Below, piece after piece: positions 1 to 32,904 of a stretch of 32,904 nucleotides of DNA (its first letter is position 1; each line of letters starts with the position of its first letter). The notes below the pieces were generated by a model. The model saw only the letters and a program-made list of their open reading frames with translations, was not told the origin of the DNA and did not search any database. A program made the position numbers and the translations under genes. This DNA is from Wenzhouxiangella sp. (GTDB lineage Bacteria > Pseudomonadota > Gammaproteobacteria > Xanthomonadales > Wenzhouxiangellaceae), in the NCBI GenBank assembly GCA_007134485.1, contig SLKT01000050.1, positions 1 through 32,904 on the forward strand, in the 5' to 3' direction.

Positions 1-60
1 AAGGTGAAAGGTGAAAGGTGAAAGGTGAAAGGTGAAAGGTGAAAGGTGAAAGGTGAAAGG
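1..60. repeat. Heptamer tandem array, unit GGTGAAA
   Basis: Eight perfect head-to-tail copies of GGTGAAA fill positions 3-58, and the array may continue beyond the left edge of the window. It is the first of four different 7-bp arrays packed into the first 222 bases. There are no unique spacers, so it is not a CRISPR. No coding role is seen. Confidence 0.95.
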
Positions 61-63
61 GTA

Positions 64-105
64 GACGGGAGACGGGAGACGGGAGACGGAAGACGGAAGA
101 CGGTG
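64..105. repeat. Heptamer tandem array, unit GACGGRA
   Basis: Six consecutive 7-bp units: GACGGGA three times, GACGGAA twice, then a decayed GACGGTG. The same unit family returns at 32804-32831 just after thiG, so it is a dispersed repeat family and not a single local expansion. Confidence 0.93.
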
Positions 106-139
106 ATCGGAGGTGGCGGTTGTCGAGCTATCAGATTTT

Positions 140-174
140 CCTTGCGCCTTGAACCTTGTTCCTTGAGCCTTCCC
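140..174. repeat. Heptamer tandem array, unit CCTTGNN
   Basis: Five 7-bp units in register: CCTTGCG, CCTTGAA, CCTTGTT, CCTTGAG and a degenerate CCTTCCC. The first five bases are constant and the last two vary, which looks like an older, diverged array compared with the perfect one at 3-58. Confidence 0.85.
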
Positions 175-187
175 CGTAAACCATTCT

Positions 188-1042
188 TCACCGTCCCCTG
201 ACCCCTGACCCCTGACCCCTGAATCCTATCGCCTTAACCTCATCAACCACCGGCGCCATGTCCGGACGCTGGCCGGTCCAGATTTCGAACGCCAGCGCAG
301 CCTGGCCGACCAGCATGCCCAAACCGTCGTGGCAGGGGATGGTGTGTTGATCGCACCAGGACTTGAATGGCTGGTGTGCTTCGCCGTAGTTCAGATCGCA
401 GGCGATGGCGTCGGGCGCCAGCCAGGCCGGGTCAATGTTGGGTGATTGTCCGCTGTGGCCCAGGCTGGTGGCCTGGACAAGCAGGGTGTAATCCTCTCGG
501 GGCGGGCCTTGGTCAAGACTGCCGGCATCAATTGGCCCCAGGTGTTCGAAGCGTTCGGCCAGTTCCACACCGCGCTCAAAGGTTCGATTGAGCAGGGTGA
601 CGAGTGCCGGTTGGGCACCCAGCAAGGGTCCGAGGATGCCTGAAGCCACACCGCCGGCGCCGACAATCAGGATGCGTGCGCCGCGGGTGTTGACCCCGAT
701 ACGCCCAAGATCCAGCAACAAGCCGGCGCCATCGGTATTGAAGCCGTGCCAGCCACCGTCTTCGAGCTTGAGCGTATTGACCGCCCGCGCCTGGCGGGCG
801 GCCCGGTCCAGGCTTCGACACAGGCGCAGGCCGGCATGCTTGAGCGGGAGAGTCAGGTTGGCGCCGATCCCGCCAACGGCTGCAAACTGCGCGATGCGAT
901 CGGGCAATTGATCGATGCTGCATCGGATTCTGGAATAGTCGACCGACAGGCCAAGCTGATCGGCGAACAGGTTGTGGATGACCGGCGACAGGCTGTGTTC
1001 GACCGGATCGCCGAATACGGCCAGTTTCAAGGTGCTGGACAT
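188..1042 (-). CDS. aroE: Shikimate dehydrogenase (NADP+)
   Basis: Reduces 3-dehydroshikimate to shikimate in the cytosolic shikimate pathway. The 284-residue protein shows the substrate-binding EHSLSP motif (residues 15-20), the catalytic lysine in NLTLPLK (K69), the partner aspartate in FNTDG (D104) and a nucleotide-binding GAGGVASG loop near residue 128. The ATG at 1042 is preferred over the TTG one codon upstream. It lies 10 bases after the hemB stop, so the two are probably co-transcribed. The last dozen residues, with sequence GFRGQGSGVRGR, are encoded by the heptamer array at 199-222. The usual family C-terminus seems to end just before it, so the tail is probably a repeat-derived extension. 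Family assignment is secure; the effect of the tail is unknown. Confidence 0.96.
   Translation of the reverse strand: MSSTLKLAVFGDPVEHSLSPVIHNLFADQLGLSVDYSRIRCSIDQLPDRIAQFAAVGGIGANLTLPLKHAGLRLCRSLDRAARQARAVNTLKLEDGGWHGFNTDGAGLLLDLGRIGVNTRGARILIVGAGGVASGILGPLLGAQPALVTLLNRTFERGVELAERFEHLGPIDAGSLDQGPPREDYTLLVQATSLGHSGQSPNIDPAWLAPDAIACDLNYGEAHQPFKSWCDQHTIPCHDGLGMLVGQAALAFEIWTGQRPDMAPVVDEVKAIGFRGQGSGVRGR
199..222. repeat. Heptamer tandem array, unit TGACCCC, inside the aroE 3' end
   Basis: Three copies of TGACCCC plus a trailing TGA. The reverse complement (GGGGTCA) occurs four times at 10253-10280, and the same heptamer fills the right end of the window from 32868. Here the array overlaps the last codons of aroE and is translated from the minus strand as a short Gly/Arg/Gln/Ser stretch. 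Confidence 0.93.
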
Positions 1043-10238: not shown

Positions 10239-10252
10239 AGGTTACTACTTAA

Positions 10253-10283
10253 GGGGTCAGGGGTCAGGGGTCAGGGGTCAGGG
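10253..10283. repeat. Heptamer tandem array, unit GGGGTCA
   Basis: Four perfect copies (10253-10280) plus GGG. This is the reverse complement of the TGACCCC array at 199-222 and at the right end of the window. It sits exactly between the terminator of groEL and the start of the amidoligase operon. Confidence 0.95.
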
Positions 10284-32006: not shown

Positions 32007-32801
32007 ATGTCCACGTTGCCTGAAGACAAGCCGCTGGTGATTGCCGGCCGGACGTACCGTTCGCGACTGCTGACCGGGACAGGAAAATACGCCGATCTCG
32101 AGCAGGCCCGACAGGCCACCGAGGCCGCCGGCGCCGAGATCGTGACGGTCGCCATTCGCCGCAGCAATATCGGCCAGAATCCGGACGAGCCCAACCTGCT
32201 GGATGTGTTGCCGCCGGATCGTTACACCATCCTGCCCAATACCGCCGGATGCTTCACGGTTACTGAGGCCGTGCGTACCTGCCGCCTGGCGCGCGAGCTG
32301 CTGGACGGGCACAAGCTGGTCAAGCTCGAGGTGCTGGGTGATGAAAAGACCCTCTTCCCGGACATCACCGCAACCCTGGAGGCAGCCGAAACCCTGATCG
32401 ACGAGGGCTTCGATGTGATGGTCTACACCAATGATGACCCGATCATGGCGCGCCGATTTGCCGAGATGGGCTGCGTGGCGGTCATGCCGCTGGCCGCTCC
32501 GATTGGCTCGGGCCTGGGCATCCAGAATCACTGGAACATTCTGACCATCGTCGAGGAAGCCACCGTCCCCATCCTCGTCGATGCCGGGGTCGGTACGGCA
32601 TCGGATGCCGCCATCGCCATGGAGCTGGGCTGCGATGGCGTGCTCATGAACACCGCCATCGCCCAGGCAAAGGATCCGGTTCGCATGGCCCGCGCCATGA
32701 AACTGGCCATTGAAGCCGGACGCGAGGCGTTCCTGTCGGGGCGTATTCCACGTAAGCGATTTGCCTCGGCCTCATCGCCTTTGGATGGGATGTTTTTTTG
32801 A
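32007..32801 (+). CDS. thiG: Thiazole synthase
   Basis: Builds the thiazole phosphate of thiamine from deoxyxylulose 5-phosphate, dehydroglycine (or glycine imine) and ThiS-carried sulfur. The 264 residues show [11 protein letters not shown] (20-30), the Schiff-base lysine K106 in [25 protein letters not shown] and [15 protein letters not shown], all typical. The ATG at 32007 is used; a TTG two codons earlier is inside the thiS stop region. GAGG directly precedes the ATG. No terminator is seen after it, and repeat arrays begin two bases past the stop. Confidence 0.97.
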
Positions 32802-32803
32802 AG

Positions 32804-32831
32804 GTCGGGAGACGGAAGACGGGAGACGGAA
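32804..32831. repeat. Heptamer array, unit GACGGRA, after thiG
   Basis: Four 7-bp units: GTCGGGA, GACGGAA, GACGGGA, GACGGAA. Same unit as at 64-105, again beside a TGACCCC-type array, so the two array kinds travel together. Confidence 0.9.
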
Positions 32832-32846
32832 GAAGGCTCCAGACCT

Positions 32847-32904
32847 CCGACTTCTGACCTCTGACTTCTGACCCCTGACCCCTGACCCCTGACCCCTGAC
32901 CCCT
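32847..32904. repeat. Heptamer array, unit CTGACYY, at the window end
   Basis: Eight full units in register: CCGACTT, CTGACCT, CTGACTT, then five CTGACCC, continuing to the last base. It is the same repeat as at 199-222 and 10253-10283 (other strand), diverged on the left and perfect on the right, and it runs out of the window. Confidence 0.93.

What the first reader, a model, noticed from the sequence alone, without database searches (positions are those of the whole stretch)
1..222. Four different heptamer tandem arrays packed in one intergenic region
GGTGAAA, GACGGRA, CCTTGNN and TGACCCC arrays follow each other within 222 bases, all with a 7-bp period but with different units. Two of them recur together after thiG. 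A shared period with unrelated units suggests a common expansion mechanism, or a selected structure, and not random slippage of one seed. I know similar heptamer arrays in some cyanobacteria, but not a described function in gammaproteobacteria.
Basis: partly seen in the sequence, partly recalled or inferred. Interest (0 to 1): 0.7.

Follow-up and report, generated by a model that had tools for sequence, protein, structure and literature searches.

The report
Seven-base repeat arrays between genes
A bacterium of the family Wenzhouxiangellaceae carries hundreds of short tandem arrays between its genes, nearly all with a 7-base unit but with many different unit sequences; this belongs to a repeat phenomenon already known from Xanthomonas, cyanobacteria and Beggiatoaceae, here with an unusually large and fast-changing set of units.

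Summary
GGTGAAA (1-60), GACGGRA (63-103), CCTTGNN (140-171) and TGACCCC (195-222) arrays fill one convergent intergenic region; GACGGRA and TGACCCC recur after thiG. The window is a whole contig of a 206-contig Wenzhouxiangellaceae draft. Both its ends lie in arrays because arrays break the assembly, but a complete genus-mate has them too, so they are not artefacts. Period 7 dominates: 34 arrays in 443 kb of unselected contigs, at most 5 for any other period, and 2 in 1.36 Mb of other proteobacteria. More than 20 units occur; repertoires differ by species.

New points: (1) the G-rich strand points away from the nearest gene (57:16), even for units without GG, so G-quadruplexes are not the general cause. 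(2) Against a close relative about 14 of 15 comparable sites keep an array, but at about six the main unit differs; one site has one TGACCCC copy against five. (3) CCTTGNN arrays form a dispersed composite.

Best reading: slippage-type expansion of 7-nt words, filtered by neighbouring genes. The heptamer bias, a polymerase explanation and the Xanthomonas geometry are published (PMC4679880, PMC4692102). New variant of a known kind; no function shown.

The parts
1..60 (+). GGTGAAA array, 8.6 copies, cut by the contig start
   Evidence: TRF; in relative G014 the orthologous array has 4.5 copies and begins at the stop codon of a usp-like gene
63..103 (+). GACGGRA array, 5.9 copies
   Evidence: TRF; only degenerate words at this place in G014
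140..171 (+). CCTTGNN array, four units plus CCTT
   Evidence: sequence; recurs at 17 places in the sampled genome
195..222 (+). TGACCCC array, 4.0 copies, overlapping the 3' end of the aroE frame
   Evidence: TRF; absent in G014; aroE translation
10252..10283 (-). TGACCCC array between groEL and the next gene
   Evidence: TRF, sequence
32806..32833 (+). GACGGRA array just after the thiG stop
   Evidence: TRF; same unit at the orthologous place in G014
32842..32873 (+). GACCTCC/GACTTCT array (14-bp register of two heptamers)
   Evidence: TRF
32854..32904 (+). TGACCCC-type array, 7.3 copies, cut by the contig end
   Evidence: TRF; absent at the orthologous place in G014

Best explanation
The four arrays are one instance of a genome-wide class of 7-bp tandem arrays. 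Shown: unit length is nearly fixed at 7 (a few at 8) while unit sequence is not; arrays lie between genes or run over gene ends; copy number and unit differ between related species at sites that usually stay occupied; the G-rich strand runs away from the adjacent gene. Inferred: arrays arise by slippage-type tandem duplication during replication, with a 7-nt preference set by the replication machinery (the published polymerase idea), from heptamer words already present in one or few copies. Old arrays decay while neighbouring words expand, which puts several unrelated arrays side by side. Arrays survive only where they do not harm neighbouring genes; the strand polarity is most simply explained by removal of Shine-Dalgarno-like G-rich units from 5' leaders and a weaker constraint at gene ends. 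No dedicated function is needed.
For: Period spectrum and background. Species-specific repertoires: GACGGRA in the own genome, GTGTTAA in G019, CCTGAAA in G003. CCNKRAA-type arrays in 26 of 30 genus genomes against almost none for the reversed pattern; GACGGRA arrays in only 9 of 43 family genomes. One TGACCCC copy in G014 against five at the orthologous own site L040:15955-16070. Unit exchange at kept sites, e.g. TGACCCC against CCGTAAA at L048:16742 and TTTCACC against GACGGGA/CCGTCTC at L039:4943. Outward-G polarity 57:16, starts 28:4, stops 29:12, absent from array-free intergenic regions. Published heptamer bias with a polymerase proposal (PMC4679880). mutS1 is present in all genomes at least 90% complete, so loss of mismatch repair is not needed.
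Against: Slippage alone does not explain why 5- and 6-mers are almost absent, nor CCTTGNN arrays whose units keep the pentamer while NN differs between neighbours (identical in 7 of 39 adjacent pairs), nor the recurring order CCTTGNN then CCGNAAA in 11 of 17 arrays (counted). The polarity also appears at gene ends, where the Shine-Dalgarno argument does not apply. G-arm and C-arm units match somewhat more often than by permutation (13 of 26 within one mismatch, null 7.8, p 0.01). Loss of SD sites before array-fronted genes was not significant.
Confidence: 0.6

Rival explanations
1. Selected boundary element: a periodic G-rich then C-rich array pair is kept at gene boundaries because it acts there (termination, leader structure, G4/i-motif or protein binding), with the unit sequence largely free.
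For: Polarity rule and G-then-C pairs 17:0; about 14 of 15 comparable sites occupied in both species while units change; arms share units more than by permutation; published suggestions for Xanthomonas (PMC4692102) and Beggiatoaceae (PMC4679880).
Against: No excess fold at 1-222 or 32799-32904; units without GG follow the same rule, so G4 is not general; complete genus-mates G041 and G045 do almost without arrays in the 200 kb sampled of each; most genus-mates lack arrays at aroE; site persistence can be plain inheritance.
Confidence: 0.2
2. Dispersed composite repeat: modules such as TTTT-CCTTGNN-CCTTTTCC-GNAAACCG are copied between loci by ectopic gene conversion or an unknown mobilising activity, and tandem expansion follows.
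For: Same module order at 11 of 17 places; TTTTCCTTGCGCCTTG six times against none in background; the same module in G014.
Against: No terminal repeats, target duplications or enzyme identified; most arrays (GGTGAAA, GACGGRA) are not in a fixed composite; shared sequence constraint not excluded.
Confidence: 0.13
3. Templated synthesis of repeats by a reverse transcriptase (DRT10- or telomerase-like) at DNA ends, giving head-to-head G-then-C arrays.
For: Geometry resembles head-to-head joined telomeres; DRT10 makes tandem-repeat DNA (PMC12632851).
Against: No PF00078 match in the own genome or in array-rich G003; far too many units for one template.
Confidence: 0.02
4. Assembly artefact.
For: 27 of 98 contig ends lie in arrays; both window ends do.
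Against: 22 arrays in 400 kb of a single-contig 3.84-Mb genus-mate; orthologous arrays in an independent draft.
Confidence: 0.01

Closest known systems
GGGAATC / GGGGAYT heptameric repeats of Xanthomonas and Nostoc (Rehm et al. 2015, PMC4692102)
   Same: 7-bp units, intergenic, dispersed, near gene boundaries with the G-rich strand on the coding strand after stops and on the non-coding strand before starts, frequent convergent pairs, sites kept between related species with changing copy number.
   Different: There essentially one unit type per genome, with GGG or GGGG, proposed to form G4. Here more than 20 units per genome, many without GGG and some in genus-mates without GG, with exchange of units at kept sites.
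Heptamer excess among long simple sequence repeats of prokaryotes (earlier survey summarised in PMC4679880; Mrazek and Huang 2014, PMC4060949)
   Same: Heptamers as the dominant long tandem unit in most genomes; interaction with DNA polymerase proposed as the cause of the 7-nt length.
   Different: Survey-level; the multi-unit packing, turnover at orthologous sites and polarity of units unable to form G4 are not in the passages read. The 2007 survey itself was not available.
TAACTGA direct repeats of marine Beggiatoaceae (PMC4679880)
   Same: 7-nt tandem repeats, almost all intergenic, often directly before start codons where the ribosome-binding site would be; other heptamers noted beside them in some Bacteroidetes.
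   Different: One fixed unit, two to six copies in that genome, one main orientation before starts, proposed as binding sites in mRNA.
Three tandem heptanucleotides of Calothrix PCC 7601 (cited in PMC4692102)
   Same: Several different heptamers in one genome.
   Different: Cyanobacterial; original not read here.

Membership tests
Xanthomonas/Nostoc-type heptameric intergenic repeats (PMC4692102) | Tandem unit of 7 bp | tested here: met
   34 period-7 arrays against at most 5 at any other period in 443 kb
Xanthomonas/Nostoc-type heptameric intergenic repeats (PMC4692102) | Predominantly intergenic | tested here: met
   73 intergenic with both neighbours called, 38 at fragment edges, 8 inside called genes, most of them in one doubtful ORF of L046
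Xanthomonas/Nostoc-type heptameric intergenic repeats (PMC4692102) | G-rich strand on the coding strand after stops and on the non-coding strand before starts; convergent pairs | tested here: met
   57:16 outward; pairs 17 G-C, 0 C-G
Xanthomonas/Nostoc-type heptameric intergenic repeats (PMC4692102) | G-tracts of 3-4 in the unit, able to form G4 | tested here: not met
   Many units have only GG (GGTGAAA, CCGGTTT, ACGGTTT) or none (AAGTGTT in G019)
Xanthomonas/Nostoc-type heptameric intergenic repeats (PMC4692102) | Preference for four units | tested here: inconclusive
   GGG units at 2/3/4/5 copies = 22/19/18/4, GG units 54/34/15/1; p 0.025
Xanthomonas/Nostoc-type heptameric intergenic repeats (PMC4692102) | Repeats are transcribed | not testable with these tools
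   No RNA data
TAACTGA repeats of Beggiatoaceae (PMC4679880) | Unit TAACTGA | tested here: not met
   Not among the units found
TAACTGA repeats of Beggiatoaceae (PMC4679880) | Occupy the place of the Shine-Dalgarno site | tested here: inconclusive
   SD-like in 3 of 20 array-fronted genes against 228 of 694 others, p 0.14
DRT10 / telomerase-like repeat synthesis (PMC12632851) | Reverse transcriptase in the genome | tested here: not met
   No PF00078 match in the own genome or G003
Phase-variation (contingency) repeats | Slippage switches a reading frame or promoter | not tested
   The arrays here flank housekeeping genes (aroE, thiG, groEL); no population data

The most novel reading that the evidence does not exclude
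Intergenic regions are under selection to hold a 7-bp-periodic array pair of fixed strand polarity (G-rich strand outward from each gene) while the unit itself is free, so that species swap the sequence but keep the place, period and polarity: a sequence-agnostic element that acts at the RNA or DNA level at gene boundaries.
Probability: 0.15. Interest if true: 0.7.

Novelty: new variant of a known kind. Interest (0 to 1): 0.4.

Why it matters
Period-7 arrays with many different units in one genome separate the length preference from the sequence, so this family could be used to test why bacteria favour 7-nt repeats. The same strand polarity in units that cannot form G-quadruplexes argues against G4 as the general explanation of the geometry published for Xanthomonas. 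In practice such arrays break short-read assemblies at gene boundaries.

Tried and rejected
All-frame stop array: TGA or TAA occurs in many units but not in GACGGRA or CCGGAAA on either strand, so it is not a general role. Conserved hairpin: fold z-scores +1.07 and -1.08. Rfam: no family in the window. General intergenic G skew as the source of the polarity: about 0 in array-free regions. Loss of mutS: present in every genome at least 90% complete. Reverse transcriptase: absent. Four-unit preference as proof of G4: only weak. Loss of SD sites in front of genes: p 0.14. Papers on tandem repeats in Wenzhouxiangella: none in the library.

Full report
What is there. The window is the complete contig C63 (32,904 bp) of a 206-contig, 3.35-Mb draft genome. 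The closest named HemB relative is a Wenzhouxiangellaceae MAG at 82% identity. Its first 222 bases hold GGTGAAA (1-60), GACGGRA (63-103), CCTTGNN (140-171) and TGACCCC (195-222) arrays. GACGGRA and TGACCCC recur after thiG up to the contig end, and TGACCCC lies between a terminator-like hairpin downstream of groEL and the next gene.

Is period 7 special? In 443 kb of contigs fetched without regard to arrays, 34 arrays have period 7, five have period 8, and no other period from 4 to 14 has more than two; first-order randomisations gave none. In 1.36 Mb of flanks from other proteobacteria there were two period-7 arrays, about 50 times fewer per base. Several of the octamer arrays look alike in style.

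Artefact? 27 of 98 contig ends of the draft lie within 60 bp of an array, against 74 of 9226 interior windows, so the arrays break the assembly. C91 and C206 both end in the GGTGAAA array that relative G014 reads through. But G019, a single contig of 3.84 Mb, has 22 arrays in the 400 kb sampled. The arrays are real.

Who has them? Three consecutive CCNKRAA units occur in 26 of 30 genus genomes, against almost none for the reversed control pattern. Density is patchy: the first 200 kb of the closed genomes G041 and G045 hold one and none, although G045 has matches elsewhere. Among 231 other gammaproteobacterial genomes drawn evenly, nine match the same pattern; a few (G110, G195) match the reversed control tens of times, which suggests that other heptamers have multiplied in other families. 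Repertoires differ by species.

Geometry. With rough gene calls of my own, 57 of 73 arrays have the G-rich strand running 5' to 3' away from the nearest gene boundary (p 1.5e-6; starts 28:4, stops 29:12; co-directional stops alone 15:8, not significant). Neighbouring arrays of opposite type are always G then C, 17:0. Intergenic regions without arrays show no skew. Units without GG follow the rule 8:0. This is the geometry reported for Xanthomonas and Nostoc heptamers (PMC4692102), where G4 formation was proposed; here G4 cannot be the general cause. The G-then-C order of pairs is roughly what the outward rule predicts for independent arrays. Arms share the unit slightly more than expected (13 of 26 within one mismatch, null 7.8, p 0.01).

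Turnover. G014 is the nearest genus-mate (AroE 89%, ThiG 92%). At aroE it has GGTGAAA (4.5 copies, directly at the stop of a usp-like gene) and CCTTGNN (four units with other NN), but no TGACCCC and only degenerate GACGGRA words. In the own genome the aroE frame runs into the TGACCCC array and gains a new C-terminus. Over about 15 comparable sites, read by eye, about 14 have an array in both genomes, yet at about six the main unit differs. At L040:15955 one TGACCCC copy in G014 stands against five in the own genome: expansion from a seed, or contraction to one. An automatic table of regions (array in both, own only, G014 only, neither) gave 5, 2, 0, 6 (p 0.02); in both own-only regions the G014 arrays are visible and were lost to my gene calls. 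Most other genus-mates lack arrays near aroE.

The CCTTGNN module. Seventeen arrays with 56 units keep the pentamer while NN varies; adjacent NN are equal in 7 of 39 pairs. The search pattern requires the pentamer, so its constancy inside the match is partly by construction; units next to an exact pair mismatch mostly at the last pentamer base. Eleven of 17 are followed by CCGTAAA or CCGGAAA, and TTTTCCTTGCGCCTTG occurs six times against none in the background. This composite points to copying between loci or a shared constraint; I cannot tell which.

Mechanism. Shown: fixed period, free unit, intergenic position, polarity, sites kept with unit exchange. Inferred: slippage-type expansion with a 7-nt preference of the replication machinery. 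That idea is published: heptamers are the most abundant long repeats in most genomes, and 7 nt may be the stretch that interacts with the polymerase (earlier survey summarised in PMC4679880). Loss of mutS and a reverse transcriptase (compare DRT10, PMC12632851) are not the cause. The polarity is probably a selection filter at gene boundaries, strongest before starts, where G-rich units would mimic Shine-Dalgarno sites; a direct test of SD loss was not significant.

Verdict. Real and far above chance, of a known kind, with a new degree of unit diversity and turnover. No function is shown.

Noticed in passing
L048:937-1100, L057:16234-16284, L051:1-126: Period-8 arrays of similar style (GGGCTAAT, GGGCGAAA, CCTCTTGA) sit beside or among the heptamers.
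   Followed up: partly
window 140-171 and 16 other places in own-genome loci: CCTTGNN arrays with variable NN, followed by CCGNAAA in 11 of 17: looks like a dispersed composite repeat.
   Followed up: partly
window 188-240: The aroE frame runs through the TGACCCC array, giving a C-terminus (FRGQGSGVRGR) that the relative G014 lacks.
   Followed up: yes
G019:C1:3792391-3820990: Nine reverse-transcriptase matches, several with identical scores, packed in 29 kb of the complete genus-mate.
   Followed up: no
G195 and G110 (other gammaproteobacterial families): 151 and 79 matches to the reversed control heptamer pattern: other heptamer types seem to have multiplied in unrelated families.
   Followed up: no
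L046:4766-8194: An open frame of about 1,150 residues holding three pairs of heptamer arrays: either a false ORF or a protein with array-encoded repeats.
   Followed up: no
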